64,000 nucleotides of DNA. Origin: Bryoerythrophyllum caledonicum. Lineage: Eukaryota; Streptophyta; Bryopsida; Pottiales; Pottiaceae. The position numbers were made by a program, and so were the translations under genes. The stretch lies in the NCBI GenBank assembly GCA_963971425.1, contig OZ020525.1:8167560-8231559 (forward strand). Reading direction: 5' to 3'. Of this stretch, positions 27,521 to 50,794 are shown one piece after another. The notes beneath the pieces are model-generated. The model was not told the origin of the DNA and searched no databases. It saw nothing but the letters and a program-made list of their open reading frames with translations. How positions within the stretch are numbered: position 1 is the stretch's first letter; each line of letters begins with the position of its first letter.

Positions 27521-28264
27521 CATCAGGTTCGACGTGTTGGACGGTTTGTGGAGGTTGGTTTACGCGTTGTAAACCAACTAGGAGGTTAAACGGCCCAAGG
27601 AAACCCTAGATGCTAGCTCAAGTTAGTAATTAGAATTAGTATTAGAGTCTTTTGACTTTTAAGGCATTGGTGGTAGCTTTTGACACCTCATTTGGGACTT
27701 GGAGTCCAAATGACCTCCACGTGTAGTGTGGAGAGACTCATCTTTTTCAAGTTGAGTCTCCCACGTGATGGAGTGAGAGAGTGCGTGCGTGCGTGCACTT
27801 CTTAAACTTCATTGTTATTATGCGACCATTCTTCAAGAATGGCATTCGCTTGACTATGAGTAGTTTATGAGTATTTTCTACTTGTTTATTACTTGAGAAA
27901 GATCATCACTAAGATATGAGTGTATTCCAAGTGATTTTGTGACACTTAAAACCCTCAAAATGTTGTGTATAGGGTGCTTTTGAGCAATGTTTTAGTGCTG
28001 AAATTTTGTTGCAAAACCTCAAGTGTGCTTAGCTAAGGGGATGAAATCCATCGGATAAGGGTGAGAATGAGTGGCCGATGTCAACTCTAAGCCAATCCAA
28101 GTGGATGATAGTCCGTTGACCTTAGACTTCATCCATACCTTCTGTGAGGAGTTGTAGATCCGCTACGTGTGGGAGTGCACGCAGCAGAGGCAGTCGCGGA
28201 CTCTGGAGTCGACAGAGAGCGGCGAGCGTGTTCGCGTGTGCATGTAGTGCAGGTCGCAAGGGCT

Positions 28265-29317
28265 TAAGCGGCAGGCTGCATCGGTGAAGCACAAGGCGAC
28301 ATATGTCTTGGAGAAAGAGGGGTACGAAGATTTTCGGGTGCCACGGGCACCATTGAAGTCGATGACTTCAAGAGGGAGTTCACCATGTGGTGTGAACTCC
28401 AGAAGTCACGTAACCCCAACTTCAATCCGTACATGGTGTGGAAAGCTTTATTTGGGTGTCTAGAGGGAGCGCCACTGGTGGACAACGGAGAGTTCGAGGC
28501 GGCTCATTTCACCAGAATCATGGCCTGGAGAGACTTCTACGCACCGAGCTACGGGGACGTGTTCGGTGGAGCACTGAGAGTGACACCCCCACTCTTGTCT
28601 AAGGGAAAGATGGAGGAAGGTACGAGCACAATGGAGGATGTAGAGCAGCCAGAGGTCTTGGTAAATCATCCACCTCCATTCAATCCCACCGTGGGATTTT
28701 TCGTGCAACTCCATAGAGACTACCAAGGATAGAGGGCGGATAAGATCAAGGCCCTTCGTTCCTTCACACGTGGAGGTGACGAGTCTTTGAGAGAGGCTCA
28801 TGCGAGATTAAGGAGACTAATCTCAGCCACTCACGGAGTTACAGAACAACAGACAGTGCAACATTGGTATAGTATCCTGGATAAGGAGTTGAAGACCTTG
28901 GTTCGCAATGAGGCGTTGCGATTGGGAGTACCCACGACACTACGGTTTGTTTTTGAGATTTCGGAGCGGATTGAGATACATTTACTAGAAGAGAAGGCAA
29001 CCATGGGCTTTTTCAAACGTGAAGAGAAGGTCCCAGAGAAGGTTAAGGTGGCCAAGGTGGCCATTCCTTCGTATATTGTAGAGTCTGGTGCCTTGTGCTT
29101 CAAATGTGGGAAGCCAGGACATCAGAGAAAGGATTGCAAGGAAAGTAAGACTTCCACACCTCAGACTGGAGGTTTTTGCTCGGGTTGTGGTGCCAAAGGG
29201 CATGCAGAGGCGAGCGACTGGAAGCTTCATCCAGAGTTGAAGCCCACGGGAAGCAAGGGAGCTAAAGGAGGCAAGGACAAGGAGTCCAAGACCAGTGGAG
29301 GAAAGAAGAAGAGCTAG
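28265..29317 (+). pseudogene. element A gag-like region with CCHC knuckle
   Basis: Gag-type structural region in one frame with the downstream pol. It holds a helical segment (EFTMWCELQKSRNPNFNPYM, then WRDFYAPSYGDVF), a TAG at 28730-28732, a second helical part (ADKIKALRSF...LREAHARLRRL) and the zinc knuckle CFKCGKPGHQRKDC (about 29095-29137). A second Cys-rich motif, CSGCGAKGH, lacks its last Cys. It ends at a TAG at 29315-29317 after a Lys-rich tail. About 290 codons of N-terminal gag present in element B are missing here. Confidence 0.75.
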
Positions 29318-29785
29318 AAGGCCAAATTCGCGGAGTTGGAGGCCAAAATAGAAGCTATGAGTGCCAATACTAATGTGGTAGGTGGCAATCCTCAGGTTAC
29401 TCCCAGTTTTCATACTGGGGGCGGTTTTAGCTCCGTGGATGATGAATTTGGAGACTTTATGTTGAGTGGCATGGCACTTGCCATCAGAGATGGCACATAG
29501 GAGGCCTATGCTCTCACACGGAGCCATACTCCAGTTTCTAAGGATATTCCACGTGGAGCTACTCCAACTCTCAATCCTCACCATGGAAAGGATAACCGAC
29601 AAGCCAGGTTGCCACAATCCTTCACGTTAGAAGAGATGGTGCCCACCTCGTCCATGGTGCCTCCACCACGACCAGTGGCGACATCCACACGAGCCTCACC
29701 ACGAGCTGGAGGACTCACAGGAGGTTCGGGAGCACTTATGGAGGCAACTACTTCCGTGTAGGAAGCCTCGTTATTTTCTGCTAAG

Positions 29786-31579
29786 ATGTTGTCACAAGAT
29801 GGCTTCAGTGTGGTAGAAGTTTTCAAGAATGTAGCCTCAATGTGTGAGTTGGACAACTCCACGGGGGCTAATGTGTTGAAGACGGAGATAATCAATGCAG
29901 AGGAGAGCCAGAGTGACAACGTGGAGGGGCTGCTTTCAGCAGCCATGCGTGTGAAGACAATGGCCGCTAGACCTGCAATTGAGAGATCATCCATTACCCC
30001 TGGTGTGGTAGTGGTTGATAATTCCCAAGGTATTTTCCAACTCGTTGGGCCTAAGGGGAAGATATTTGTACCTCGACGTGTGCTTCTGGATTCGAGAGTT
30101 CAACCTTTGATGCTGGGAGCGTCTGCTATGGAAGGGTTGGGATTAACTGGGGATACTTTGGAGAAGTGTCCCTGGACCATTAGCACATCCATGGGGGGTA
30201 CAGAGCACGCTACATGGATCACAAGGGCTGAATTGGTGTTACAACTCAACCAAAGTGATGTGGCAGATGCTAGTTCCATGAAGGTGAAGACAATAGTTAC
30301 GGAGGCCAAGTCATATGATGTCTTGTTGGGCTCGGCGGTGCTATATCCAATGGGATTCACCTTGGATTTCTGGGAGGAGTCAGCAAGCTATAGACCAGGA
30401 TGGGAAGCAGGAGATGGGCGGAAGGCTCAGCTGCGAGCTCGATTTGTTCGAGTTCTTACTGGTAATTTTGCTGACGTGTTTGCCTTCTCTGGAAATATGA
30501 ATATGAAACCTTCATGGTTTTGGCTAGGTTTTGAGGATCCTTCTATGGTTGACCACATTTCAGAGAAAGTGGATGTCTACATGGGCAACACGAGTGGTGA
30601 AGAGAAAGAAGGATACAGACCTGGGATTGAGGCGGCGCGGAGTAACACCATCCAGTTGAGGGAGGCCGTGGAGTTAGCAGTGGAAGAGGCATGGCAACAT
30701 TCTATGCTACCACAGATGCAACAGGAGCCTGGAGTTGACCAAGACCTAGGACCTCCATTAGACACTGCCACCATCCATTGGAAGGCACTAACAGTTGGCA
30801 TCGTATTGTTGGAACTATTTGGAGGCATTGGCATAGGATTAGCAGCTGTTTTACAAGTTGGGATCAAGGTTAAGCGCTACATTTACGTGGATGTGGATGA
30901 AGTAGCAAGGCATGTGGCCAAACGTCACATACGGAGATTGAGGACTCAATTTCCAGAATTGTTGGCCACTAGTGCCATCAAAACCTCCTTCTCTACACTT
31001 GTGGGTGATATTTCCTTGTTGTCAGACGATGACATTCACCGTGTGGGTCCTGTGGACCTTGTCATTGCAGGATGGCCTTGCCAATGCATGTCTATGGCAG
31101 GCAATGAGAATGGATTAAAGGATTTCCGTGCTTCCAGGTTCATTGACATGATTCGAGTGCTTCGGTTGCTTCAGACTTCTCAGAGGCAACCGCCTGGTTA
31201 TATTGTAGAGAACGTGCCCGTGGTGAGCAGTTCGAGGTCTAAGACACTCGAGAGTATGGATAGGATCCATCAGACTTTGGGATTGCCAGTGTTAATTGAT
31301 GCGGCTGCAGTAGGATCCAGGGCACATAGACCACGCTTGTGGTGGACAAACCTGGCACCAACAGAGTTGCTACAGTCCGCGGTGGGTCGCATTAAGCGCC
31401 CAGATGTGTATGTGAGTGACATTTTGGATCCTCACAGGATCCCACGGCGCGTGTATCACGATGACCAGACACCATTAGCGGTGGTTAACCGCAAGGGGGA
31501 ACCACGTAGGGCCTTGCCCACGTTGGTTAGTTTTGCACGGTCTTATGCTTTCAAGGATAATGGCCCTGGGCTAGTTTGA
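29786..31579 (+). CDS. element A protease-like region fused to DNMT3-like cytosine-C5 methyltransferase
   Basis: 597 codons from an ATG at 29786 to a TGA at 31577-31579. Residues about 75-200 look like a retropepsin; the active-site Gly is replaced (LLDSR, 102-104). Residues about 335-597 are a C5-methyltransferase: motif I LLELFGGIGIG (341-351), motif IV GWPCQC with the catalytic Cys at 432, motif VI ENVPV (475-479) and RAHRPRLWWTNL (512-523), which has the AHRxRxxWxNL pattern of DNMT3-type enzymes. The last motifs (MGFPTGTTDV...RRFLFGQAMD) follow only after the TGA, so the domain is complete only if that stop is read through. The presumed role is de novo cytosine methylation. The copy in element B encodes the same 597 residues. 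Confidence 0.88.
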   Translation: MLSQDGFSVVEVFKNVASMCELDNSTGANVLKTEIINAEESQSDNVEGLLSAAMRVKTMAARPAIERSSITPGVVVVDNSQGIFQLVGPKGKIFVPRRVLLDSRVQPLMLGASAMEGLGLTGDTLEKCPWTISTSMGGTEHATWITRAELVLQLNQSDVADASSMKVKTIVTEAKSYDVLLGSAVLYPMGFTLDFWEESASYRPGWEAGDGRKAQLRARFVRVLTGNFADVFAFSGNMNMKPSWFWLGFEDPSMVDHISEKVDVYMGNTSGEEKEGYRPGIEAARSNTIQLREAVELAVEEAWQHSMLPQMQQEPGVDQDLGPPLDTATIHWKALTVGIVLLELFGGIGIGLAAVLQVGIKVKRYIYVDVDEVARHVAKRHIRRLRTQFPELLATSAIKTSFSTLVGDISLLSDDDIHRVGPVDLVIAGWPCQCMSMAGNENGLKDFRASRFIDMIRVLRLLQTSQRQPPGYIVENVPVVSSSRSKTLESMDRIHQTLGLPVLIDAAAVGSRAHRPRLWWTNLAPTELLQSAVGRIKRPDVYVSDILDPHRIPRRVYHDDQTPLAVVNRKGEPRRALPTLVSFARSYAFKDNGPGLV

Positions 31580-32128
31580 GATTCATTGTCTCAAGAGATG
31601 GTAGAGCCCAATGCAGATGAGAGGGAGGGAGCCATGGGCTTTCCCACTGGCACCACCGATGTGCCTGGGATTTCAGAACCACAGAGACGGTTTCTATTTG
31701 GTCAGGCAATGGATTTAAATTGCCTGACTTGGATTGTTTCATTAGTGGTTGTTGAACAGAAGCGTTTAGCTTCTAGTTTGACGAGTTACATGGGATATTA
31801 CAAGTTGCGGGCGGCAGGAGAACCAGTTGCCTCTATCAGGGTGACAAGCAAGGTGGTTGGGGGCGAGAGGGCCTTTGCACCTCATCCATGGAACATGTGG
31901 GATATTGCAAATAATTTTGCGACTACGACAACAACAGATCTTCACTATGGAGGGGAGAACTGGAGTGAAGGGAGCAGATTGGATTTGGAGGATGTTGTGG
32001 AGAAGATCTTCTCGGAAGAACACACAGCTCTTCACATGGAAGAAATTGACAAACTGGGTCAATTGGAAGGACTTGGGAGTGTTATTGAGGAGGAAGGAGG
32101 GGAGTCTCCTTCACTGGGGATTCAATAG
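31580..32128 (+). pseudogene. element A: methyltransferase motifs IX-X and linker to RT
   Basis: In frame with the region above. It begins DSLSQEMVEPN, then GAMGFPTGTTDVPGISEPQ and RRFLFGQAMDLN, which correspond to the C-terminal motifs of DNMT3-type enzymes. An acidic linker follows to a TAG at 32126-32128. The upstream TGA and this TAG bracket it in both copies. Confidence 0.7.
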
Positions 32129-32733
32129 CAACCAAAGGTGGAAAACCCTGCTCCAAAGGAACCGAAGGAAATGGTGACTAAGGACACTTGGAAACCAAGA
32201 GTATCCCTCGCGGATGGAGCAGTGGAGGTGGAGGAATATGAGTTTATGAAGGAGTATTTAGATTGTTTTGCTTTCAGTTTATATGATTTGGGAGTGTTGA
32301 AGGGGCAAGAAGTACGTATTAACTTAACCGACGAAGCACCAATTTATCGAAAGCCATACAAGTACAGCGACATGGAGCGAAAGATGATTCGTACTCGCAC
32401 TGAAAAATTGATGGCTGCAGGGTTGGTGGACTTGGCTCCTCCAGATTGTGAGTATGCATCAGCAACGGTTATACCATCCAAGAAGGACATTTATGGTAAT
32501 TGGACGGAAAAAAAGATGTGTGGTGACCATAGGAGAATAAATAAATTCACTAAATCAGACCGTTATGCAATGCCAACTCCGGAGGAGAACTTTGAGGCCA
32601 TTAGCCATGCCAAGGTGTTTAGTACGTTGGATTTATGCTCTGGATACCACCAGATTGGATTGAGAGATGAAGACAAGGAGAAAACCACGTTCTGGGGCAT
32701 TGACAAAGATGGGAAGGACCCGTTGTTTCAATG
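32129..32733 (+). pseudogene. element A reverse transcriptase, N-terminal half (interrupted by element B)
   Basis: Ty3-type RT: LTDEAPIYRKPYKYS, EYASATVIPSKKD, CGDHRRINKFT and FSTLDLCSGYHQIGL, with the first catalytic Asp in TLDL. It stops at AATG (32730-32733), where element B inserted. The second half resumes at 47809. Confidence 0.88.
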
Positions 32734-33160
32734 TGTCGTGTACAACCGCATCGTGCCAAGATAACATCAAGCTTATCAGGTGAGAACGCACAGTCAGAGA
32801 CAACTCGAGAGTAACGGTGACATAACCACGACCGTTAGCTCTATAAAACAATAATACAGTGCACATTTACACACTTTCAGCAATCCAGACTTGGAGAAAA
32901 GAAATAAATGACCCATGACCTCGTACACCAAAAAGTAGTAAGCGGTCTCCAGGTACCCCTTTACTCGCCCTCTTCGCCCGCGCTGAAGCCCCTTTGACAC
33001 CGGCGAACCACACAGTTTACATGTAAACTGAATGATAACCGTGAATGAAAACCTCTCAAAACCATAGAACCAATGTCATCTACATGAAAAGACGCTAAAA
33101 GACTTAACAAACAAAGGGTAGGCCGGGTGCAAGTAGAGCCCCATCGTTAATCGCCTCTAA
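32734..33160 (-). repeat. element B 3' terminal tail
   Basis: About 430 bp of non-coding sequence from the conserved box to the terminus, matching the A tail at 50370-50794. It holds a TATA-like TTTTATAGAG about 100-115 bp before the terminus in element orientation. Nothing similar occurs at the 5' end of B. Confidence 0.7.
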
Positions 33161-33196
33161 CATATTTTTAATGCTAGAATTTTTCCACTCAGACCC

Positions 33197-34156
33197 TCAA
33201 TGTGCTAAACACTCAGGACAAGACCATTGATCTACTGGTACTTCCAACAGAGGTGGAGTTAAGCATTCTAAATGCCACCCTGTAGAATATAAGTCACAAA
33301 TAACCATAGTGGCTGCCCTTTTGGCACTACCACACAACCGACAACGTAATTCAGCAGAGATGTGAGAGAGATCAAGGTAACCTGTCCCATCAATGTGTGG
33401 CAAGTGGCAAGGTGCACAATTACGTGTGTGATCCTTCCACTTCTTGCCATCACGACCCTCAAACACTAACACTCCTGAGTCCTTCACCTCACGAACTCTT
33501 AAGATTACCTTTCCTGCTGTCTCATCCAAGGTGGTCGGTGCTGCTTGCTGCAAATACATATAGTCTCCAAGTGTGTAACGCCGCACCTTCAGTCGATAAC
33601 CACCTCCCGGTATTGTAGCATAGCGCAACGTATCCCGATGCTGAGCAATGGAGAGGTTCTCCAATGCCATAGGCATGACCCTTTTGAACAGCTCTGCACG
33701 TTGCTCACACACTTGAGCCCACGTGTCTGGATTGTCTATGTTAGCCAACACGGTGTCAGAATCTGCTTATATGGCCTTCGGTAAAACCGGGTGCCTTCCA
33801 AACAATAGATAGCAAGGTGAAAAAGACGCCAAGGATGCCTATTTGCTGAACCGATAGCCTATTGCTATCCATGGTAGCTGTAAATCCCAATCTTGGTGAT
33901 GTCCTTTCTTCAAGCTGTACTTCCGGAGCCCCCTCTTGACGGTTTGCACCATGCGTTCCGCCAATCCATCTGCTTCGAGATGATCCCTCGAAGTAGTGCG
34001 ATGATCAATCATCGCTTGCTCACACAACGTTTGAAACTCACCCAAGAATTCTCTACCTTGGTCTGTGAGTACCTCTGCTGGAGCTCCAAAGCGACTCAAA
34101 ACACGGTCAAGAAATAAATAAACGGCCCCCTCACTGAATTTATCAGACAATGCCAC
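33197..34156 (-). pseudogene. element B integrase catalytic core, C-terminal part and PHD finger
   Basis: Integrase core with VLTDQGREFLGEF (second Asp) and DHLEADGLAERMVQT (catalytic Glu), then a TAG (33839-33841), ASLASFSPYYLLFGR, a TAA (33767-33769) and a C-terminal region with RRYTLGDYMYLQQ. The last 60 residues form a PHD finger: CRLCGSAK, then VICDLYSTGWHLECL, then WSCPEC, a Cys4-His-Cys3 ligand order. PHD fingers read histone tails. In this position other Ty3 elements may carry a chromodomain, so a targeting role is likely but not shown. Confidence 0.85.
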
Positions 34157-34165
34157 TAATTCTAT

Positions 34166-35218
34166 TCATTTCGAGAAATGCTCGATGATTACCAACACAT
34201 ACTTGTTGTGTCGAGGTGTCACTGGCAGTGGATCTACAAAATCCAAGCTCCATCTATATCCTAAGCCCATAATTGGCAAAGGTTGTAACTGAGGCATTGG
34301 AGCGTTAAAAGACGCTCGTACCCGGTCACACACACCATACACCGGGCCACCATAGCCTGCACTTCGGATTGCATTCCACGCCACCAATAGTGAATCTGAA
34401 GTAGACTATAAGTCCTCCGCACTCCAAAGTGTCCAGAGTCCTCATGTGTGTCCTTAATCAGTTTCACTCTTTCTATTGGAGCTGGTACTACCTTCTTAGT
34501 ACCATCTGGCCACAATCTCACAAGATGAGTTCTCTCCCACACAAACCTCTTAGCTCGTTGTAGAACCCTATCTCTTTCTTTATAAGACCATGAAGCCACT
34601 ACTTCTCCATCCTTCAAAAACTGCATCACATTCGTGTCTTCGTGGATATCTCTGGCGCCCCCGGACTCTTCACCTCCATCCTCATTTACTGTCGCCACAG
34701 TAGCTTCCCCGGTGGTGTCTCCATGCATTGCCAATATCCCCAGAAAACCCGAACAATGCCACCCTAGCAACGGGTCGGTTTCACCCTCAGTATGCCACCT
34801 AGCATCTGTAGCATCCTCTTGGTTTGGAATTGGATTGCGGCTAAGGCCATCTGCATCCATATTAACCAAACCTGCCCTATGAACCACCTTGAAGTCATAC
34901 TCCATCAACATCAAGGCCCACCGTGCCAATTTTCCTGTCAATTAATCAGACTCCATCAACGATTTCAACGGCTGATGATCTGAAACTAACAGAAATTCGT
35001 TACCATAAAGGTAACACCAAAAATGAGCAATTGTCCATATCGCAGCCAAGCATTCCCCTTCATACGAGCTATACTGAGCCTCAGCATTGTTGTTGGACCG
35101 GCTGGCATACGCAATCACAAATTCCTTACCATCATCATCCATTTGAGTCAATACTGCACTTATCCCCAACGAGCTCCAATCTGTGTGTAGCTGGTATGTC
35201 CTTCGTGCTATAGGCCTC
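34166..35218 (-). pseudogene. element B RNase H C-terminal part, integrase zinc-binding domain and first Asp
   Basis: RNase H sequence RRTYQLHTDWSSLGISAVLTQ, YEGECLAAIW and DHQPLKSLMESD, then a TAA (34939-34941), then LTGKLARWALMLMEYDF. The HHCC zinc-binding part has HEDSGHFG and ARCMVC. A GT insertion in a GTGTGTG run then shifts the frame, and the catalytic core resumes as WSLDFVDPLPVTP before a TGA (34166-34168) at an expected Trp. The same lesions occur in element A. Element C interrupts it at 35218. Confidence 0.82.
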
Positions 35219-36429
35219 TGTTGTAGTTCGTAGAGACAGTATTCCTCCGGAATGCCCCTAATTGTCACTAAGAGCTTCCTAAAGTAACCGCTCCGGTTTC
35301 GTTCTCACAGAGACCTAAATATCTTCTTATCAGTACTCCGGATTATTAAGCTTACCAAAGCAAATCGGATACGAGTTAGCTATAGTCCTTCCTTACTTAG
35401 GTTAGATCCGGATCCGTCAGGATCCGGATTTTATACAATGGTTTCCGGAGAATAGGTTCCGGAAATCAGGGGGGGTAGTTTGATTAGTCTTTGTTCGTCC
35501 TCAGAGATTCTCCTGGAGTTTTTAAACGAGTGGCCGAAGTCCACTAACCTTGTTTTGTGTAAGTGGCTGGGTTTCCCACTGCCGTGTGACTTAAAGTGGC
35601 TAGGCACCCACTGTCCGGAGCTTATAGTGACCGAACAACACTCTCCCTACTATGCTAACTGGTAATTCGATTGCTGCTGCCGGACTATGGCTCTCACGAC
35701 ATCCGGAAGGCCTTCCGACGGTCAGACAGAGACTAACCCGGCTACAACGGCATTCCGGGGGGGTATGATTGTAAATCTCCGGGATAGAGACTCACGGTTT
35801 GCTATGGTTATTTTATCTAGGTATTGGTATCAGGCTTTTCCCTATCTCAGGGGAGAACTCCGGTATTGACCGGAATCCAGTTTAACACGGTTTCCTCCGC
35901 AAACTAGAGATTACCAGGAACACCTTTGCAGTTCATCTCTTCCCCTCCTGGCTACTTCCGGACCCTGGGGACTACCAGGAACACCTCTGCAATAGTTCTC
36001 CCCAGCTCTCTCGAGCGTTCTCCTGACACTACCTTTAATAACTTCCCCCTCCGGCACAACAAGTGAGTTACCCTAGTCCGGAAGAATTCCTCACACAACC
36101 ATACCCTCAAGAATGGATCCGTCACTCACAGGATTAACACGTCCCACAATAACACAAGGTAGCAAATCTAGTGAAAAAGGTAACGTATATTTCCGAGTGA
36201 GATGAATAAGATGAAGGTTTTTCCCAAAACCTCCTACTAAGTACTCTCTGAATTTCCAAATTCAGATTTCCTTCTACCTATGACTACGGGAAATCTGCTA
36301 GATCATATCTAAAAGATCCGAGAAATCCGGAAAAGTCCCAGATCGGATCTCAGATCCTGAAATCTCGGAATAGTTCCTGGACTCCGGACTTCCTTCTCTA
36401 ACAAAACCTGGCTAGTAATTCCGGTAGCA

Positions 36430-36462
36430 GCCGGGTGTACTTGGGGCCCCATCGTTAGTCGT
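36430..36462 (-). promoter_or_regulatory. conserved 3' box of element C
   Basis: In element orientation it contains CGACTAACGATGGGGCCCC followed by AAGTACACCCGGC. It lies about 70 bp after the gag stop and matches the boxes in A and B. The G run resembles a polypurine tract. Confidence 0.6.
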
Positions 36463-36529
36463 TGCTGATCCGAACTCTAACCCTGAGAAAAAGAAACAAA
36501 CAAAAAAGAACCTACAACCTAGTTTAACC

Positions 36530-38593: not shown

Positions 38594-39190
38594 GGAGTCA
38601 GATTATTACCTCACTATCTCTCGAGGTTGTCCCTGCACGCACCGTCCTCACACAAACCCTCCCTAACGGACACACGTCCGTTCTAACTGTCCGATTCTCC
38701 AAACCCTAACGGCAAGCGATTTGAAAAATCATAAGAGCGAAAGGAAGAGCGATAGCAAAAAAATGAACAAGCCGAGACGCATGAAGACACAGTGAGAAGA
38801 AAGAGTATCCGTCCAAACCCCAACCTTAAATAGTCTGGCCGTTAATACGGCATCATGATGGCGGTTGATGGGGACAGTTCCGGTTGACGGTTGCGGATAA
38901 CTGACTGCCCCGGAATCCTAGTAACTGCTCCGGTTCCGCTTTTAACATCTTTAGGCTTAATTAGGGTTGGCGGTCAGGTTGATCCAACTTTATTCCTACC
39001 AAAAGACTATTGCTTCTATCCTGGCACAATCTATCATAAAATATTACTAAATTTTTGTGTTTTGGCCGGAACTTAAGGTAATCTTCCGGCACCATGTGGG
39101 AACGGAATCCCACAGCCTCCGCAGTATTGGTGCTCATGCCAAACGGCCTTTCAATTGTTGAAAGGCCGCCTCTTGCCTATCTACCCAGAT

Positions 39191-40216: not shown

Positions 40217-40225
40217 CTTTGGTTG

Positions 40226-40774
40226 CTATTGAATCCCCAGTGAAGGAGACTCCCCTCCTTCCTCCTCAATAACACTCCCAAGTCCTTCCAATTGACCCAG
40301 TTTGTCAATTTCTTCCATGTGAAGAGCTGTGTGTTCTTCCGAGAAGATCTTCTCCACAACATCCTCCAAATCCAATCTGCTCCCTTCACTCCAGTTCTCC
40401 CCTCCATAGTGAAGATCTGTTGTTGTCGTAGTCGCAAAATTATTTGCAATATCCCACATGTTCCATGGATGAGGTGCAAAGGCCCTCTCGCCCCCAACCA
40501 CCTTGCTTGTCACCCTGATAGAGGCAACTGGTTCTCCTGCCGCCCGCAACTTGTAATATCCCATGTAACTCGTCAAACTAGAAGCTAAACGCTTCTGTTC
40601 AACAACCACTAATGAAACAATCCAAGTCAGGCAATTTAAATCCATTGCCTGACCAAATAGAAACCGTCTCTGTGGTTCTGAAATCCCAGGCACATCGGTG
40701 GTGCCAGTGGGAAAGCCCATGGCTCCCTCCCTCTCATCTGCATTGGGCTCTACCATCTCTTGAGACAATGAATC
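40226..40774 (-). pseudogene. element B: methyltransferase motifs IX-X and linker
   Basis: Same sequence as 31580-32128 in element A, bracketed by the same TGA and TAG. Confidence 0.7.
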
Positions 40775-42568
40775 TCAAACTAGCCCAGGGCCATTATCCT
40801 TGAAAGCATAAGACCGTGCAAAACTAACCAACGTGGGCAAGGCCCTACGTGGTTCCCCCTTGCGGTTAACCACCGCTAATGGTGTCTGGTCATCGTGATA
40901 CACGCGCCGTGGGATCCTGTGAGGATCCAAAATGTCACTCACATACACATCTGGGCGCTTAATGCGACCCACCGCGGACTGTAGCAACTCTGTTGGTGCC
41001 AGGTTTGTCCACCACAAGCGTGGTCTATGTGCCCTGGATCCTACTGCAGCCGCATCAATTAACACTGGCAATCCCAAAGTCTGATGGATCCTATCCATAC
41101 TCTCGAGTGTCTTAGACCTCGAACTGCTCACCACGGGCACGTTCTCTACAATATAACCAGGCGGTTGCCTCTGAGAAGTCTGAAGCAACCGAAGCACTCG
41201 AATCATGTCAATGAACCTGGAAGCACGGAAATCCTTTAATCCATTCTCATTGCCTGCCATAGACATGCATTGGCAAGGCCATCCTGCAATGACAAGGTCC
41301 ACAGGACCCACACGGTGAATGTCATCGTCTGACAACAAGGAAATATCACCCACAAGTGTAGAGAAGGAGGTTTTGATGGCACTAGTGGCCAACAATTCTG
41401 GAAATTGAGTCCTCAATCTCCGTATGTGACGTTTGGCCACATGCCTTGCTACTTCATCCACATCCACGTAAATGTAGCGCTTAACCTTGATCCCAACTTG
41501 TAAAACAGCTGCTAATCCTATGCCAATGCCTCCAAATAGTTCCAACAACACGATGCCAACTGTTAGTGCCTTCCAATGGATGGTGGCAGTGTCTAATGGA
41601 GGTCCTAGGTCTTGGTCAACTCCAGGCTCCTGTTGCATCTGTGGTAGCATAGAATGTTGCCATGCCTCTTCCACTGCTAACTCCACGGCCTCCCTCAACT
41701 GGATGGTGTTACTCCGCGCCGCCTCAATCCCAGGTCTGTATCCTTCTTTCTCTTCACCACTCGTGTTGCCCATGTAGACATCCACTTTCTCTGAAATGTG
41801 GTCAACCATAGAAGGATCCTCAAAACCTAGCCAAAACCATGAAGGTTTCATATTCATATTTCCAGAGAAGGCAAACACGTCAGCAAAATTACCAGTAAGA
41901 ACTCGAACAAATCGAGCTCGCAGCTGAGCCTTCCGCCCATCTCCTGCTTCCCATCCTGGTCTATAGCTTGCTGACTCCTCCCAGAAATCCAAGGTGAATC
42001 CCATTGGATATAGCACCGCCGAGCCCAACAAGACATCATATGACTTGGCCTCCGTAACTATTGTCTTCACCTTCATGGAACTAGCATCTGCCACATCACT
42101 TTGGTTGAGTTGTAACACCAATTCAGCCCTTGTGATCCATGTAGCGTGCTCTGTACCCCCCATGGATGTGCTAATGGTCCAGGGACACTTCTCCAAAGTA
42201 TCCCCAGTTAATCCCAACCCTTCCATAGCAGACGCTCCCAGCATCAAAGGTTGAACTCTCGAATCCAGAAGCACACGTCGAGGTACAAATATCTTCCCCT
42301 TAGGCCCAACGAGTTGGAAAATACCTTGGGAATTATCAACCACTACCACACCAGGGGTAATGGATGATCTCTCAATTGCAGGTCTAGCGGCCATTGTCTT
42401 CACACGCATGGCTGCTGAAAGCAGCCCCTCCACGTTGTCACTCTGGCTCTCCTCTGCATTGATTATCTCCGTCTTCAACACATTAGCCCCCGTGGAGTTG
42501 TCCAACTCACACATTGAGGCTACATTCTTGAAAACTTCTACCACACTGAAGCCATCTTGTGACAACAT
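40775..42568 (-). CDS. element B protease-like region fused to DNMT3-like cytosine-C5 methyltransferase
   Basis: 597 residues, identical in sequence to the element A copy: altered protease motif LLDSR, methyltransferase motif I FGGIGIG, catalytic PCQ in GWPCQC, ENVPV, and the DNMT3-type AHRPRLWWTNL. It ends at the same TGA before motifs IX and X. The enzyme would methylate DNA cytosines, using S-adenosylmethionine. Its place inside gag-pol suggests that it travels in the particle with the reverse transcriptase and could mark new cDNA or the insertion site; that is inference. Complete identity with A over this span contrasts with about 10 percent divergence elsewhere. Confidence 0.88.
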   Translation of the reverse strand: MLSQDGFSVVEVFKNVASMCELDNSTGANVLKTEIINAEESQSDNVEGLLSAAMRVKTMAARPAIERSSITPGVVVVDNSQGIFQLVGPKGKIFVPRRVLLDSRVQPLMLGASAMEGLGLTGDTLEKCPWTISTSMGGTEHATWITRAELVLQLNQSDVADASSMKVKTIVTEAKSYDVLLGSAVLYPMGFTLDFWEESASYRPGWEAGDGRKAQLRARFVRVLTGNFADVFAFSGNMNMKPSWFWLGFEDPSMVDHISEKVDVYMGNTSGEEKEGYRPGIEAARSNTIQLREAVELAVEEAWQHSMLPQMQQEPGVDQDLGPPLDTATIHWKALTVGIVLLELFGGIGIGLAAVLQVGIKVKRYIYVDVDEVARHVAKRHIRRLRTQFPELLATSAIKTSFSTLVGDISLLSDDDIHRVGPVDLVIAGWPCQCMSMAGNENGLKDFRASRFIDMIRVLRLLQTSQRQPPGYIVENVPVVSSSRSKTLESMDRIHQTLGLPVLIDAAAVGSRAHRPRLWWTNLAPTELLQSAVGRIKRPDVYVSDILDPHRIPRRVYHDDQTPLAVVNRKGEPRRALPTLVSFARSYAFKDNGPGLV

Positions 42569-43036
42569 CTTAGCAGAAAATAACGAGGCTTCCTACACGG
42601 AAGTAGTTGCCTCCATAAGTGCTCCCGAACCTCCTGTGAGTCCTCCAGCTCGTGGTGAGGCTCGTGTGGATGTCGCCACTGGTCGTGGTGGAGGCACCAT
42701 GGACGAGGTGGGCACCATCTCTTCTAACGTGAAGGATTGTGGCAACCTGGCTTGTCGGTTATCCTTTCCATGGTGAGGATTGAGAGTTGGAGTAGCTCCA
42801 CGTGGAATATCCTTAGAAACTGGAGTATGGCTCCGTGTGAGAGCATAGGCCTCCTATGTGCCATCTCTGATGGCAAGTGCCATGCCACTCAACATAAAGT
42901 CTCCAAATTCATCATCCACGGAGCTAAAACCGCCCCCAGTATGAAAACTGGGAGTAACCTGAGGATTGCCACCTACCACATTAGTATTGGCACTCATAGC
43001 TTCTATTTTGGCCTCCAACTCCGCGAATTTGGCCTT

Positions 43037-44946
43037 CTAGCTCTTCTTCTTTCCTCCACTGGTCTTGGACTCCTTGTCCTTGCCTCCTTTAGCTCCCTTG
43101 CTTCCCGTGGGCTTCAACTCTGGATGAAGCTTCCAGTCGCTCGCCTCTGCATGCCCTTTGGCACCACAACCCGAGCAAAAACCTCCAGTCTGAGGTGTGG
43201 AAGTCTTACTTTCCTTGCAATCCTTTCTCTGATGTCCTGGCTTCCCACATTTGAAGCACAAGGCACCAGACTCTACAATATACGAAGGAATGGCCACCTT
43301 GGCCACCTTAACCTTCTCTGGGACCTTCTCTTCACGTTTGAAAAAGCCCATGGTTGCCTTCTCTTCTAGTAAATGTATCTCAATCCGCTCCGAAATCTCA
43401 AAAACAAACCGTAGTGTCGTGGGTACTCCCAATCGCAACGCCTCATTGCGAACCAAGGTCTTCAACTCCTTATCCAGGATACTATACCAATGTTGCACTG
43501 TCTGTTGTTCTGTAACTCCGTGAGTGGCTGAGATTAGTCTCCTTAATCTCGCATGAGCCTCTCTCAAAGACTCGTCACCTCCACGTGTGAAGGAACGAAG
43601 GGCCTTGATCTTATCCGCCCTCTATCCTTGGTAGTCTCTATGGAGTTGCACGAAAAATCCCACGGTGGGATTGAATGGAGGTGGATGATTTACCAAGACC
43701 TCTGGCTGCTCTACATCCTCCATTGTGCTCGTACCTTCCTCCATCTTTTCCTTGGACAAGAGTGGGGGTGTCACTCTCAGTGCTCCACCGAACACGTCCC
43801 CGTAGCTCGGTGCGTAGAAGTCTCTCCAGGCCATGATTCTGGTGAAATGAGCCGCCTCGAACTCTCCGTTGTCCACCAGTGGCGCTCCCTCTAGACACCC
43901 AAATAAAGCTTTCCACACCATGTACGGATTGAAGTTGGGGTTACGTGACTTCTGGAGTTCACACCACATGGTGAACTCCCTCTTGAAGCCATCGACTTCG
44001 ATGGTGCCCGTGGCACCCGAAAACCTTCGTATCCCTCTTTCTTCACCTCCATATGGTGAAGCCATTCCTTCCCAATGAAAATATGATTGGTAGGGCTTTG
44101 TGGGTAAAACTGGGATCTGAACACTCACTTGCGGGCTTTCAAGAAATTCTTCCTCTTCCACCTGTGGCAAAGCACTCTCCTCTGTCACTTCTAGTGGACC
44201 ACGATTTTCTGTCAACACCCTCTCACTAGCATCTACTGAAAAAGAGGTGTTTCTCCGTGTAAACCCGGGACTCTTCCAATTACCCAGATTGCTACTTGGG
44301 TGGTGTACTCGAACAATCGCTAGGCTTCATGGATTCCTCTCATCTCTGGAGCATAAATCGTAGGTGTGACTTCCCAGTCCAATAACTCTAAGGTAAGAGT
44401 ATCCCACACACTTGAGGCACGCTCTTGCCACGTATTAAGCTCCCACTGCCAGGTAGTGTGGAATAAAAATCCTTCGCTCTCGAACTCGGTGAAAATGAGG
44501 GAGAAGGTAGGTAACTATATGCCTAAAGAGAAGTCCTCGACCTCTACACCATATTTGGATCCAAAATTTTGAAGAACCGCGGCCTTACCTCCAGTTACCA
44601 AGTCTTCAACCCTCACTTGCCCACGAGCGCGGTACAGAGGTGCTGGAATTCCCTCCTTCATCCGAAGTGAGCGGATCTTCTGCACCCCACCTAGTGAAGT
44701 CCAATACTTTATTGATTCCGCACTCAACACCTTCGTGCCTGGTTTACGCAAATTCTGGGGCCCTGTGCGAGATTTGGCTGTGGATGAAAGCTCAAAGTCT
44801 CCGTGGCTACCACTTGCTGTGGCTGGGGAACCTTTCACTCGTAGGCTTTGCAAACAATCGATCAAGGTGTCCAACACTTGGCCATCAATTTCCACCTTCG
44901 GCCCACTAGTCCTCTGAGGTTTCTTAGACTTACCTCTTCCCTCCAT
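43037..44946 (-). pseudogene. element B gag-like region
   Basis: Starts at an ATG at 44944-44946 (MEGRGKSKKPQRTSGPK). It runs through a TAG at 44515-44517, a TAG after HEA at about 44320 and one frame change near 44240. It then continues as the gag sequence seen in A, with a TAG at 43622-43624 and the knuckle CFKCGKPGHQRKDC (about 43260-43218). It ends in KKKS at a TAG (43037-43039). It is longer than A at the N-terminus by about 290 codons. Confidence 0.75.
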
Positions 44947-47804
44947 GGTCCATAACTCAAGTCTTAAATATCCTTGAAATTCTCAAACCATATTCATAGA
45001 GTTCCCGCAAGCTTCCAAGCGTCCACTTTGCTCCCTATCAGGCGCTGTGTATGCAATCACCCCACATAATAAACCTTGATCCTCACATGACCTCACATGC
45101 AAGCCCTTCCTAATTTCATACGAGTATGGCAACCATACATACGGTCCCAGTGCGGGTGTCGTGCGCAAATCTGAGCATATACCATAAAACCATGTACATG
45201 CAACCAGGCGGGTGTTATTACTGGTTATCAATCCCAATCTCGGTTACCAACCTCCATAGCCGGTCATCAACCCGACTGCCGATTTTCAATCCGACTGCAG
45301 GTCATCAACCCCACAGCCGGTCAACAATCAAGGGGCCGGGTATATCCAAAAATAGGATCTCCAACCATCACTTGGGTATCACTGACCAGCTCGGGTATCG
45401 TACAATTCAGGAATTCTAGTACCAACACCGAATATCAATCACAAGCGAGGAGTACCACTTGTACTCAGGGTATCAACTGCTAACCAATGCATCAACAGAA
45501 CCGGGTAAAACCTCACAACCGGGTATAAACCTCACGGCCCGGATATGCACCAACTACCGGATATAAATCCCATGTCCCGGTTATCAACCCTCAAGACCAG
45601 ATACCCCTAGAATCGTCCGGGTATTAGTAGCATTGTCGGGTATCAGTAGTACATCCAGGTATCAGTAATGCATCCGGGTTCCAGTAGTCTATCCGGGTAT
45701 CAACGGGCAGAGCGGGTATAAGGCAAAAAGCGGGTATCAGCCTCACTGGCGATTCTTGGTCACACTCCCGGATGTCACTCGCACTACCGGATACCCTCTC
45801 ACTGCCGGGTACTAGTATAAGTACCGGGTACGGGTATAAGAACCGGGTACCAATCAAGTATGAGGGTCTCAAACCAGTTGTACGGGTATAAGCTCGCTAA
45901 AGCCGGGTATGAGTAGTACTGCAGGGTATCATGGATCAGCGGATATCAGGACCAGGCGGATATCAACTACTACGAGGGTATGAGTCCAGCCGGGATGCAG
46001 TAAGCAGCAGCCGGGCGTATGCAACAGGGTCCGGGTAGGGTTACTTCGCAGGCAGTCTGTATCGTGTCTGTGTGCACACCGCACCTTCGATCCTCCGAAC
46101 AGACACGAAGTGTACTCTGAACCTCTCTCCACACCACACAGTCCTGACACAACTCCTCAATGTCCCACGTTAAACCGTCTCAACTCTCTGCGTACTGTCT
46201 GTGCACACTCCAGCGTTCTGTCCGTGCACACTCCCATGGCTGTCTGTGCACAGGAATCACCACAAATTCCGCAGGAACACAATCTCCACCACAACTCCCG
46301 CCCTCAAGGCTACTACACCAGATCCCATCATGACTCTGAAGTTAAGCGCCTTTGTATGACCGCATCACTTTGAGGCTAAAGCAGCCGTCTTGCAGTTGCG
46401 TTTGTGCAACAGCACCAGCACCGCCGCGAACGCCCCACAAACTCAGTCCCCTTCACCACAACTCAAACGTGCGTCGTCAATGGTACCCAGTTGATTGGAC
46501 TCCAAAGCAGGCCCCTATCGCCACCCCCCACGCTCACGGCATTCGGTACCCACGCCTCGCCCCACGTTCTCGAGCTGATCTGGTCCACCTCACACCAAAG
46601 AAAGACGTGGTCCCCAGGATCAAGTTCAGACCACGAGCGAAAGCACCCACTCTATTGAACTAATTTCAGAACGCTTCTGCAAACGCTATACACTCCGGTG
46701 CAACTCTAGACGCCGATCACGATGAGCAAGCTAGCGCATCAGTTGGACGTGCTAACTGCTGCCCGAGAAGAAAAGACCACACGCTGCTACTACCTGTACG
46801 ACTGAAGAGAAAATCCTTTTCACAAACACCCAATTACTCCACCAACTCTGGTCTTGTAAACGGGGCACCAGCGCCACAGCATGTTCCCTGGCCGATCTGG
46901 AGTCACCGGGCCATGATGTACCAGACCCCGCGCGCGCGTCCACGAGACACGGAGTGTATCCCATAAACTCGCTCAACAACCTGCTCTAAACTCCCGTCTA
47001 CGGCCTGTTCAAACACAAAGGGCGCGCTGTTGCTGCTCCCATCGCTACGTCCTTCGCTGTGAGCTCCCAGCTCTCGACCTCACGACCTCCAACCTTCACA
47101 GTCAACGTCCAGAGCCCTCAGCACGCAGCCTTCGCAGCTCCAACGTCAACAGTCCGCCCAAAGCGGATCTTGTTTCATCCACCAACTACGGATGAATCTC
47201 CAAGTCAACGGGGTTTCATCTATGCTGGTTGGCACATGGCCATCCTCCGCCACTCCTTTCTAACCTTATCCAATGGATTTCATCCACTTAGCTAAGCACA
47301 CTTGAGGTTTTGCAACAAAAATTCAGCACTAAAACATTGCTCAAAAACACCCTAAACACAACATTTTGACGGTTCTGAGTGTCACAAAATCACTAGGAAT
47401 ACACTCATATCACTAGTGATGATCTTTCTCAAGTAATAAACAAGTAGAAAATACTCATAAACTACACATAGTCAAGCCAATGCCATTCTTAAAGAATGGT
47501 TGCATAATAACAATGAAGTTTAAGAAGTGCACCCAAGCACACACTCTCTCACTCCATCACGTGGGAGACTCAACTTGAGAAAGATGAGTCTCCCCACACT
47601 ACACGTGGAGGTCATTTGGACTCCAAGTCCCAAATGAGGTGTCAAAAGACACCACCAAGGCCCTAAAAGTCAAATAACACTAATACTAACTCTAATTAAC
47701 AACTAAAGCTAGCATCTAGGGTTTCCTTGGGCCATTTAACCTCCTAGTTGGTTCACAACGCGTAAACCAACCTCCACAAACCCTCCAATGCATCGAACCT
47801 AACA
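44947..47804 (-). other. element B 5' leader (2.9 kb, non-coding)
   Basis: From the 5' terminus to the gag ATG. The outer 550 bp (47804-47250) align with 27521-28070 of A. The inner part includes the minisatellite at 45222-46030 and GC-richer sequence with repeats of TGTGCACA type (46195-46255). No primer-binding site is recognisable. Confidence 0.6.
45222..46030. repeat. minisatellite, period about 20 bp, in the element B leader
   Basis: About 35-40 degenerate units carry CCGGGTATCAAC or CCGGGTATAAG cores spaced 18-22 bp. Element A lacks this region entirely. The unit differs from the 21-bp AGATTC family elsewhere in the window. Confidence 0.75.
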
Positions 47805-47808
47805 AATG

Positions 47809-49268
47809 GAAGTTTCTACCGTTTGGATTGAAGAATGCTCTAGCAGAATTTCAGAGGGTTATGGACAGAGTATTCTCGGGGTTGGATTTCGTGAGATGCT
47901 ATATCGATGATATCATTGTCTTTAGCAGGAATCGAAAACAACATAGACTACACTTGATAGAGGTTTTTGCAAGATTGAGGCTTCATGGATTAAAGTTGCA
48001 CCCTGGTAAGTGCAAATTCTACTTTGATCGCATTGAGTATTTAGGCCACATGGTTTATCCAAGTGGATTAGGTGTGGTAGCTAGCAAAGTGGAAGTAGTG
48101 ATGTCTATTCCTAGACCACGAGATGTTAGTAGGTTGAGAGCATTTCTGAGGTCATGTAACTATTATAGAAAGTTTGTCAAAACTTTCAGTGCTATTGCCA
48201 AGCCATTAACCATGTTGACAAGGAATGATCAACCTTGGATCTCGGGAGATGATCAAGAGGCGGCCTTTCAACAATTGAAAGACCGTTTGGTATCAGCACC
48301 AATACTTCGGAGGCCTATAGCAGGAAGGACGTACCAGTTACATACATATTGGAGCTCGTTGGGGATTGGTGCAGTATTGACGCAAATGGATGATGATGGC
48401 AAGGAATTTGTGATTGCGTATGCCAGCCGGTCCAACAACAATTTTGAGACTTAGTATATCTCGTATGAGGGGGAATGTTTGGCTGCGATATGGGCAAATT
48501 GCTCATTTCTGGTGTTATCTTTATGGTAACGAACTCCTAATAGTTACAGATCATCAACCGTTGAAATCGTTGATGGAGTCTGATTAATTGACAGGAAAAT
48601 TGGCACGGTGGGCCTTGATGTTGATGGAGTATGACTTCAAGGTGGTTCATAGGGCAGGTTTGGTTAATATGGATGCAGATGGCCTTAGCCGCAATCCAAT
48701 TCCAAACCAAGAGGATGCTACAGATGCTAGGTGGCATACTGAGGGTGAAACCGACCCGTTGCTAGGGTGGCATTGTTCGGGTTTTCTGGGGATATTGGCA
48801 ATGCATGGAGACACCACCGGGGAAGCTACTGTGGCGACAGTAAATGAGGATGGAGGTGAAGAGTCCGGGGGCGCCAGAGATATCCACGAAGACACGAATG
48901 TGATGCAGTTTTTGAAGGATGGAGAAGTAGTGGCTTCATGGTCTTATAAAGAAAGAGATAGGGTTCTACAACGAGCTAAGAGGTTTGTGTGGGAGAGAAC
49001 TCATCTTGTGAGATTGTGGCCAGATGGTACTAAGAAGGTAGTACCAGCTCCAATAGAAAGAGTGAAACTGATTAAGGACACACATGAGGACTCTGGACAC
49101 TTTGGAGTGCGGAGGACTTATAGTCTACTTCAGATTCACTATTGGTGGCGTGGAATGCAATCCGAAGTGCAGGCTATGGTGGCCCGGTGTATGGTGTGTG
49201 TGACCGGGTACGAGCGTCTTTTAACGCTCCAATGCCTCAGTTACAACCTTTGCCAATTATGGGCTTAG
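47809..49268 (+). pseudogene. element A RT C-terminal half, RNase H and integrase zinc-binding domain
   Basis: Resumes after element B. RT reads FLPFGLKNALAEFQRVMDRVF with catalytic YIDD at 47900-47911. RNase H follows (RRPIAGRTYQLHTYWSSLGIGAVLTQ). An A-only TAG (48452-48454) lies where B has Gln, and an A-only single-base insertion sits near 48495. A TAA shared with B lies at 48585-48587. The HHCC domain follows with ARCMVC and the same GT insertion at about 49193-49201. Confidence 0.85.
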
Positions 49269-49269
49269 G

Positions 49270-50332
49270 ATATAGATGGAGCTTGGATTTTGTAGATCCA
49301 CTGCCAGTGACACCTCGACACAACAAGTATGTGTTGGTAATCATCGAGCATTTCTCGAAATGAATAGAATTAGTGGCATTGTCTGATAAATTCAGTGAGG
49401 GGGCCGTTTATTTATTTCTTGACCGTGTTTTGAGTCGCTTTGGAGCTCCAGCAGAGGTACTCACAGACCAAGGTAGAGAATTCTTGGGTGAGTTTCAAAC
49501 GTTGTGTGAGCAAGCGATGATTGATCATCGCACTACTTCGAGGGATCATCCCGAAGCAGATGGATTGGCGGAACGCATGGTGCAAACCGTCAAGAGGGGG
49601 CTCCGGAAGTACAGCTTGAAGAAAGGACATCACCAAGATTGGGATTTACAGCTACCATGGATAGCAATAGGCTATCGGTTCAGCAAATAGGCATCCTTGG
49701 CGTCTTTTTCACCTTACTATCTATTGTTTGGAAGGCACCCGGTTTTACCGAAGGCCATATAAGCAGATGCTGACACCGTGTTGGCTAACATGGACAATCC
49801 AGACACGTGGGCTCAAGTGTGTGAGCAACGTGCAGAGCTGTTCAAAAGGGTCATGCCTATGGCATTGGAGAACCTCTCCATTGCTCAACATCGAGATACA
49901 TTGCGCTATGCTACAATACGGGAAGGTGGTTATCGACCGCAGGTGCGGCGTTTTACGCCTGGAGATTATGTGTATTTGTAGCAAGCAACGTCCACCACCT
50001 TGGATGTGACAGCTGGAAAGGTAATCTTGAGAGTTCGTGAGGTGAAGGACTCAGGAGTGTTAGTGTTTGAGGGTCGTGATGGCAAGAAGTGGAAGGATCA
50101 CACACGTAATTGTGCACCTTGCCACTTACCACACATTGATGGGACAGGTTACCTTGGTCTCTCTCACATCTCTGCTGGATTACGTTGTCGGTTGTGTGGT
50201 AGTGCCAAAAGGGCAGCCACTATGGTTATTTGTGATTTATATTCTACGGGGTGGCATTTAGAATGCTTAACTCCACCTCTATTGGAAGTATCAGTGGATC
50301 AATGGTCTTGTCCTGAGTATTTAGCACGTTGA
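49270..50332 (+). pseudogene. element A integrase core and PHD finger
   Basis: WSLDFVDPLP, VLTDQGREF and DHPEADGLAE supply a DDE triad. Stops: TGA 49361-49363 (expected Trp), TAG 49688-49690, TAA 49759-49761, and an A-only TAG 49979-49981. The PHD finger (about 50175-50325) keeps CRLC, ICDLYSTGWHLEC and WSCPEY. In the last motif the final Cys has become Tyr, so this copy has lost one zinc ligand while B keeps it. Confidence 0.85.
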
Positions 50333-50374
50333 GGGTCTGAGTGGACAAAGTCTAGCATTAAAAATATGTTAGAG

Positions 50375-50407
50375 GCGACTAATGATGGGGCTCTACTTGC
50401 ACCCGGC
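50375..50407 (+). promoter_or_regulatory. conserved 3' box of element A
   Basis: Reads CGACTAATGATGGGGCTC followed by TACTTGCACCCGG, 43 bp after the polyprotein stop. The B copy is at 33122-33154 and the C copy at 36430-36462. It may act as a polypurine tract plus a terminal signal. Confidence 0.6.
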
Positions 50408-50794
50408 CTACCCTTTGTTTGTTAAGTCTTTTAGCGTCTTTTCATGTGGATTACAGTGGTTCTATGGTTCTGAGAGGTTTTCATTCACAGTTATCATTCA
50501 GTTTACATATAAACTGTGTGGTTCGCCGGTGTAAAAGGGGCTTCAGCACGGGCGAAGGGGGCGAGTAAAGGGGTACCTGGAGACCGCTTACTACTTCTTG
50601 GTGTACGAGGTTATGGGTCAATTATTTTTTTTCCCCAAGTCTGGATTGCTGATAGTGTGTAGTGTGTATTGTTTTGTTGTTTTATAGAGGTAACAGTGGT
50701 GGTTATGTCACCGTTACTCTCGAGTTGTCTCTGACTGTGCGTTCTCACCTGATTAGCACGATGTTATCTTGGCACGATGCGGTTGTGCACGACA

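What the first reader, a model, noticed from the sequence alone, without database searches (positions are those of the whole stretch)
27521..50794. Retroelements that carry a DNMT3-like DNA methyltransferase inside gag-pol
Both copies encode a C5-methyltransferase between protease and RT, with motif I FGGIG, PCQ, ENV and a DNMT3-type AHRxRxxWxNL. The gene is part of one long gag-pol frame, not a chance neighbour, and two independent insertions carry it. Methyltransferase capture by retrotransposons has been described in dinoflagellates and charophytes, so the principle is known. The combination here with a PHD finger and LTR-less ends looks new. Such an element could methylate its own cDNA or its target.
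Basis: partly seen in the sequence, partly recalled or inferred. Interest (0 to 1): 0.9.

Follow-up and report, generated by a model that had tools for sequence, protein, structure and literature searches.

The report
Moss retrotransposon carrying a DNA methyltransferase
A moss genome carries a large family of jumping elements that encode their own DNA-methylating enzyme, and the shape of their copies suggests that they insert from DNA circles rather than in the way textbook retrotransposons do.

Summary
The window carries two copies of a Ty3/gypsy-type element with a C5-methyltransferase (MT) between protease and RT and a PHD finger after integrase; one is inserted inside the other. The MT is DNMT3-like by profile and fold. 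The host is a moss. Both window copies are dead (protease DSG to DSR, TGA inside the MT), and their MT genes are one near-identical tract, so not independent evidence. The family is large (73 scored matches). Its ends are not simply LTR-less: at the 3' end, 24 of 36 other copies read B-GC-A-B, giving A-coding-B-GC-A-B (A 371 nt, B about 232 nt), the DIRS-like layout de Mendoza 2018 reported for KnitGypsy-Dnmt3; the window copies are the short form A-coding-B. A ends at a 12-nt self-complementary primer site, B starts at a purine-rich tract, and 13 of 13 checked copies have 4-bp target duplications. This fits reverse transcription of an LTR-like unit B-GC-A, then integration of a circle opened at the palindrome GACA-GC-TGTC. 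Pol lies behind a conserved UAG-CARYYA stop. MT capture is known; I found no report of the PHD, self-priming, readthrough or circle reading in the papers searched.

The parts
27521..32733 (+). outer copy, 5' half: A repeat, leader, gag-PR-MT, start of RT
   Evidence: target duplication ATTC at 27517-27520 and 50795-50798
47805..50794 (+). outer copy, 3' half: rest of RT, RNase H, integrase, PHD, B repeat
32734..47804 (-). inner copy, whole, nested in the RT of the outer copy; ends TGTTAGG...CGACA
   Evidence: target duplication AATG at 32730-32733 and 47805-47808
29786..31579 (+). outer protease-MT ORF (597 aa); MT from about residue 335; stops at a TGA
40775..42568 (-). inner protease-MT ORF, same 597-aa sequence
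31586..32128 (+). outer MT C-terminal part after the TGA, ending at the conserved TAG 32126-32128
   Evidence: no Pfam match by itself
40226..40768 (-). inner MT C-terminal part, ending at the conserved TAG
32126..32134 (+). TAG-CAACCA (UAG-CARYYA readthrough motif) between MT and RT, outer copy
28787..29317 (+). outer gag part with CCHC knuckle
43622..44218 (-). inner gag N-terminal part
   Evidence: no Pfam match
39494..40216 (-). inner RT part
47828..48454 (+). outer RT end and RNase H
34261..34941 (-). inner integrase zinc-binding domain
48588..49268 (+). outer integrase zinc-binding domain
   Evidence: same translation as 34261-34941
33197..33751 (-). inner PHD-finger ORF (integrase C-terminus and PHD)
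47434..47804 (-). A repeat, inner copy (371 nt), holds a hairpin with the primer loop at 47574-47585
47422..47433 (-). presumed primer-binding site CTTGAGAAAGAT, directly after A
27521..27891 (+). A repeat, outer copy (371 nt)
32734..32965 (-). B repeat, inner copy (232 nt), preceded by the purine-rich tract GGGCGAAGAGGGCG
50564..50794 (+). B repeat, outer copy
35219..39114 (-). separate 3.9-kb TG...CA element with target duplication GCCTC, inserted in the RNase H of the inner copy
28606..32732 (.). near-identity tract with 39622-43748 (1 mismatch in 4127 nt)

Best explanation
This is a moss family of Ty3/gypsy-type retroelements whose ORF1 is gag-protease-DNMT3-like methyltransferase and whose ORF2 (RT, RNase H, integrase, PHD) lies in the same frame behind a UAG-CARYYA stop that some ribosomes probably read through. 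Shown from sequence: this architecture; the A-coding-B-GC-A-B layout; 4-bp target duplications; a 12-nt site abutting A that is complementary to a hairpin loop in A; the purine-rich tract before B; and A and B pairs within a copy that are more alike than between copies. Inferred: RNA primes itself with the loop in A. Reverse transcription makes an LTR-like unit B-GC-A at both ends. The ends join into a two-unit circle, which creates the A|B joint. Integrase nicks the joined-end palindrome GACA-GC-TGTC after each CA and inserts the opened circle as A-coding-B-GC-A-B. Short copies (A-coding-B), such as those in the window, come from one-unit circles or from later B x B recombination. The MT, made at Gag level, most likely methylates the element's own DNA before or at integration. 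The PHD most likely helps choose the insertion site. The two window copies are decayed short forms, one inside the other.
Against: No circle, cDNA, transcript or methylation was observed. One near-constant joint (23 of 24) could also be copied from a template rather than made anew each time. The tract before B is purine-rich but holds C. The primer match is lost in the outer window copy (6 nt only), and 3 of 13 further A2 loops differ from the 12-mer. The L099 primer site was placed by similarity, not independently. Short forms are commoner in the second sample (7 of 17 resolved against 2 of 16, Fisher p 0.12), which would favour later recombination over one-unit circles, but not significantly. 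The 14 copies for dN/dS were chosen for lack of stops. 5 of 14 of these differ from AGWPCQ around the catalytic Cys, two by Q to L. Across the wider family 8 of 52 domains miss the motif-IV pattern.
Confidence: 0.62

Rival explanations
1. Ordinary linear integration with DIRS-like split repeats: A2-B2 is inherited through the RNA, the cDNA is linear with A and B at its ends, and integrase acts on those ends as in any Ty3 element. No circle is needed.
For: 13 of 13 copies have 4-bp duplications and A/B ends as for linear substrates; the A2-B2 joint is the same in 23 of 24.
Against: A2-B2 falls exactly at the primer-site edge of A and the purine-tract edge of B, where LTR ends are expected, and a linear route then needs other primers at A start and B end, which I did not find but did not search for systematically. 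A and B pairs within a copy are closer than between copies, so A2 and B2 seem to be remade each round.
Confidence: 0.2
2. The window-type short copies are truly LTR-less elements with their own replication route.
For: Outer and inner copies have no LTR-like direct repeats, a third, older copy nearby has no second A or B, and 9 of 36 sampled copies end at B; two with both ends seen have intact 4-bp duplications.
Against: 24 of 36 have A2-B2, and the short form is just what a B x B deletion or a one-unit circle would leave; the shared termini and coding region show that it is the same family.
Confidence: 0.08
3. The methyltransferase is a passenger: captured, drifting, with no role in the element's cycle.
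For: MT of the window copies is broken; 5 of 14 stop-free copies differ next to the catalytic Cys.
Against: dN/dS 0.22 in the MT part, as low as in the protease part, 0.285 (copies chosen for lack of stops); motif IV intact in 44 of 52 and EN in 50 of 52 sequences covering the domain.
Confidence: 0.1
4. The two identical MT genes in the window are an assembly artefact (one copy's reads used twice).
For: 1 mismatch in 4127 nt beside 92-96% in the neighbouring segments, ending at the insertion junction.
Against: Gene conversion between inverted repeats gives the same pattern and ends at the same place; reads were not available.
Confidence: 0.3

Closest known systems
KnitGypsy-Dnmt3 of Klebsormidium nitens (de Mendoza et al. 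2018, PMC5890265; abstract, sections 9 and 11 and passages read)
   Same: DNMT3-type MT inside the coding region of a Gypsy element; repeat layout stated to be that of a DIRS element; purifying selection on the MT
   Different: Here in a moss, in large number, with MT in ORF1 before a readthrough-type stop, a PHD finger ('PHD' does not occur in that paper's main text), a self-complementary primer site and a joined-end palindrome; their supplement was not read and no K. nitens sequence was compared
MT-bearing gag-pol proteins of Marchantia, Calypogeia, Sphagnum, Closterium and metagenomes
   Same: order gag-PR-MT-RT where seen; up to 74% local identity; Marchantia P0107 carries PHD
   Different: unnamed or hypothetical records; their repeats could not be seen
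Second architecture RT-RNase H-MT-integrase-PHD (P0123, P0124, P0129, P0132; partial P0119, P0120)
   Same: same domains, related MT and RT
   Different: MT lies after RNase H; separate group in both trees
SymbioDIRS-Dnmt3 / DIRS elements
   Same: A-coding-B-A-B repeats, DNMT3 in pol (SymbioDIRS)
   Different: they use a tyrosine recombinase; here H2C2-rve integrase and 4-bp duplications
Tf1/sushi self-priming Ty3 elements (passages of PMC7175516)
   Same: RNA complementary to its own primer site
   Different: [quoted passage not shown] here a 12-nt hairpin loop about 220 nt into A

Membership tests
KnitGypsy-Dnmt3 type | DNMT3-type MT in the coding region of a Ty3/gypsy element | tested here: met
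   RT of the related type-2 profile best Ty3 3.5e-124
KnitGypsy-Dnmt3 type | A-coding-B-A-B repeats | tested here: met
   24 of 36 family copies by their 3' ends, 11 of them with A1 also seen; the window copies themselves lack A2-B2
KnitGypsy-Dnmt3 type | MT sequence groups with the K. nitens element MTs | not tested
   no listed hit was named as K. nitens
Ty3/gypsy LTR retrotransposon | PR, RT, RNase H, rve integrase in that order | tested here: met
   L099 ORF1 and ORF2 in order; window pieces (rve core itself not matched in the window pieces); in this family MT sits between PR and RT
Ty3/gypsy LTR retrotransposon | two direct long terminal repeats at the ends | tested here: not met
   none in the window copies; permuted repeats in the family
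DIRS order | tyrosine recombinase | tested here: not met
   Pfam finds rve and H2C2 and no phage integrase in the L099 ORFs
DIRS order | no target duplication (recalled) | tested here: not met
   13 of 13 with 4-bp duplications
DNMT3 | closest to DNMT3 among solved C5-methylases, motifs unrearranged | tested here: met
DNMT3 | tree placement among DNMT1, CMT, DRM, DNMT3 | not tested
   reference sequences of those families were not fetched; only profile and fold comparison done
DRM | rearranged motif order | tested here: not met
   motif I precedes IV, VI and VIII
self-priming (Tf1-like) | primer site complementary to the element's own RNA | tested here: met
   use in priming not testable here
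type I stop readthrough | UAG-CARYYA before an in-frame ORF | tested here: met
   16 of 16 copies, L099; motif as in passages of PMC5382211; readthrough itself not testable here

The most novel reading that the evidence does not exclude
A Ty3-type integrase in this family uses circular DNA as its normal substrate: it opens two-unit circles at an internal joined-end site (GACA-GC-TGTC), so every full insertion is a circular permutation of an LTR element, and one-unit circles give the short copies. The element-borne DNMT3-like enzyme methylates these circles.
Probability: 0.45. Interest if true: 0.88.

Novelty: new variant of a known kind. Interest (0 to 1): 0.76.

Why it matters
It shows that methyltransferase-carrying gypsy elements occur across bryophytes and streptophyte algae and are abundant in a moss, not a curiosity of one alga. 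It gives exact sites (primer loop, purine-rich tract, joined-end palindrome, readthrough stop) that make two open questions testable: why retroelements keep a DNA methyltransferase, and whether a DDE integrase can integrate from a circle junction.

Tried and rejected
LTRs or LTR remnants in the window copies: none by window self-BLAST (matches of 60 nt or more listed) or by a word-4 comparison of the two ends, where the best matches looked like chance. Twin-priming inversion or a palindromic duplication: rejected once the four segments resolved into one copy nested in another. Cytosine-deamination signature between copies: no clear excess. tRNA primer sites recalled from memory (iMet, Lys, Asp/Arg, Trp): a few 12-mers with two mismatches, none convincing. 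Rfam: no family at gathering score in window or L099. Relatives in viral contigs: three scans gave none; two gave only distant methylases over short stretches (best rows 32% and 32% identity), not examined further. Genome contigs: one clear relative, L099; the other 78 of 79 loci match at E 2e-17 or weaker and were not examined. Papers: ten searches. The eight on the element listed, by title and start of abstract, no other report of this architecture in bryophytes or of PHD in such elements; the other two looked up known motifs. Subscription papers and preprints are not held. A DNMT tree with DNMT1/CMT/DRM was not built for want of reference sequences. VIA-align listed no DRM or DNMT1 row among 50; that is inconclusive.
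Full report
WHAT IS IN THE WINDOW. Self-comparison gives four inverted pairs: 28312-32732 with 39622-44042 (99.84%), 32730-35218 with 48310-50797 (96.2%), 27525-28078 with 47246-47800 (92.3%) and 39115-39624 with 47805-48314 (93.5%). They resolve into an outer element on the + strand (27521-32733 plus 47805-50794) and an inner element on the - strand (32734-47804) inserted in the outer RT. The inner flanks are the interrupted RT and carry AATG twice; the outer flanks look by eye like the same satellite-like DNA and carry ATTC twice. A 4-bp match within one base of random ends has a chance of 0.034. In the inner copy a third element (35219-39114, TG...CA, duplication GCCTC) interrupts RNase H. 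Of 7 mismatches in the first pair, 6 lie in its first 294 nt; the other 4127 nt have one.

DOMAINS. Pfam finds CCHC, C5 methylase, RT/RNase H, integrase H2C2 and PHD in the window pieces. The protease motif reads DSR in the window where 14 of 14 stop-free family copies read DSG. The MT stops at a TGA where 10 of 15 aligned relatives have W. I take the window copies as dead.

HOST. The lactate dehydrogenase at 8824-9759 has moss proteins as its best named hits (Ceratodon purpureus 77-81%, Physcomitrium 78%). The window is contig C14, 8167560-8231559, of a 437-Mb assembly.

TWO ARCHITECTURES. One has PR-MT-RT (window, L099, Marchantia, Closterium); the other has RT-RNase H-MT-integrase-PHD. In the MT tree (49 rows) the ten rows set as second type plus P0116, which carries MT and H2C2, form one side of a 100/99 branch; long branches (P0134, P0130) are unsure. 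The RT tree (11 rows) separates the types at 100/99. Whether this is one capture and a move or two captures is open, because no MT-free outgroup was included.

THE FAMILY IN THE GENOME. The MT ORF has 73 scored matches, the window's two included (2495 first-look candidates; a lower bound), at 85-100% identity, most over the whole query; 22 of 73 have no stop in the matched stretch, and an open frame of 1371 aa recurs. Over 14 stop-free copies dN/dS is 0.22 in the MT part (90 pairs) and 0.285 in the protease part (91 pairs). All 14 keep PC and ENV; 5 of 14 differ from AGWPCQ.

ENDS. One-kb windows at the predicted 3' end of 16 copies: in all 16 the last codons of the PHD ORF and B lie where expected, so MT is linked to pol. 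In 14 of 16, B is followed by a dinucleotide (GC in 12; GT and AC once each), then 371 nt of A (368 and 370 in two copies), then B again; in 2 of 16 foreign DNA follows B. In 20 further copies, 10 show A2 followed by B2, 7 show a perfect B end followed by other DNA, and 3 show neither (recounted by BLAST). Together: 24 of 36 long, 9 of 36 short, 3 of 36 unresolved. Of the first 16 copies, 13 had A1 in the fetched stretch; 13 of 13 have perfect 4-bp duplications, 11 long and 2 short. A third copy near the window, about 79% identical, is also short: no second A or B, and only 3 of 4 bases of a possible duplication match. So the layout is A-coding-B-GC-A-B, and the window copies are the short form.

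SIGNALS AT THE EDGES. A ends at TTTATTA (12 of 13; one TTCATTA), directly before CTTGAGAAAGAT (13 of 13). That 12-mer is the exact complement of ATCTTTCTCAAG, in a hairpin loop inside A (1 of 5000 shuffles as long). The loop, where visible, fits in 12 of those 13 copies (none visible in one); in 13 further A2 it is identical in 10. L099, a 46% relative, has CTTGACAAAGAT and ATCTTTGTCAAG, also in a hairpin, a compensating change (0 of 5000); its site was placed by similarity. The outer window copy has lost the match. B1 is preceded by GGGCGAAGGGGGCG or near. The A2|B2 joint is TTTATTA|GTAAAGG in 23 of 24, two with one substitution; one copy has extra bases there. A1 and own A2 differ by 0.58% (others 3.11%; 10 copies), B1 and own B2 by 0.87% (others 2.46%; 14 copies, own closest in 13). 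So A and B pairs seem to be remade in each round, as LTR pairs are.

A CIRCLE-LIKE CONTIG. L099 (CADCWO010000201.1, filed under a cyanobacterial MAG, by content eukaryote DNA) is 9285 bp with its first 127 nt repeated at its end. It holds gag-PR-MT and RT-RNase H-integrase-PHD ORFs, and B-like then A-like DNA joined by GACAGCTGTC. Such a contig can be a real circle or a short-read collapse of the split repeats.

TRANSLATION. MT and RT are in one frame with a TAG between. In 16 of 16 copies it reads TAG-CAACCA and in L099 TAG-CAATCA, the type I readthrough motif UAG-CARYYA (passages of PMC5382211). MT would then be made with Gag and pol at a lower level; this is inferred.

MECHANISM. If the primer site bounds A and the purine-rich tract bounds B, the LTR-equivalent is B-GC-A and its linear cDNA would end at the edges of A and B. 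The genomic A|B joint is those two edges joined, as in a two-LTR circle. The insertion ends are at B|GC|A, with GC missing from the ends, as if integrase removed it after CA on each strand of the palindrome. Opening a two-unit circle there gives A-coding-B-GC-A-B; a one-unit circle gives A-coding-B. This is inference from anatomy. B x B recombination explains short copies as well.

KNOWN AND NEW. MT capture in Gypsy with DIRS-like repeats was reported for Klebsormidium (PMC5890265; outline, abstract, sections 9 and 11 and passages read; supplement not read). Its discussion proposes cDNA methylation for the DIRS elements; its main text does not hold the word PHD. Termini TGTNR are usual for Gypsy (passages of PMC2836005). 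New here, as far as the listed searches go: the bryophyte family and its abundance, the PHD combination, the primer hairpin, the readthrough stop, and the circle reading.

Noticed in passing
35219-39114: A 3.9-kb TG...CA element with 5-bp duplication GCCTC and long ORFs without Pfam match, no LTRs seen; a 78% relative lies about 69-72 kb right of the window's end. It carries the same conserved motif as the MT elements near 36453.
   Followed up: partly
33145 (-), 50384 (+), L099:6761: A 52-nt noncoding motif after the PHD stop (GGCGATTAACGATGGGGCTC...CACCCGGCCTACC) is 85-87% conserved between the moss and L099, unlike most of the noncoding DNA around it; function unknown.
   Followed up: partly
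44043-47246: The inner copy has a leader about 3 kb longer than the outer copy, with degenerate tandem motifs and a 143-aa ORF (44515-44946, -) without Pfam match.
   Followed up: partly
L099: Eukaryote-type retroelement contig filed in a Synechococcales MAG (CADCWO010000201.1): apparent contamination of a genome record.
   Followed up: partly
22741-24774 and 21251-22300: Two long ORFs on the - strand (677 and 349 aa) without Pfam match, possibly another transposon.
   Followed up: no
27401-27520 and 50799-50990: By eye both flanks of the outer copy are the same kind of satellite-like repeat, so it may sit in a repeat array.
   Followed up: no
P0119, P0120, P0123, P0124, P0129, P0132: Database elements with the methyltransferase between RNase H and integrase, a second architecture of the same domains.
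   Followed up: partly
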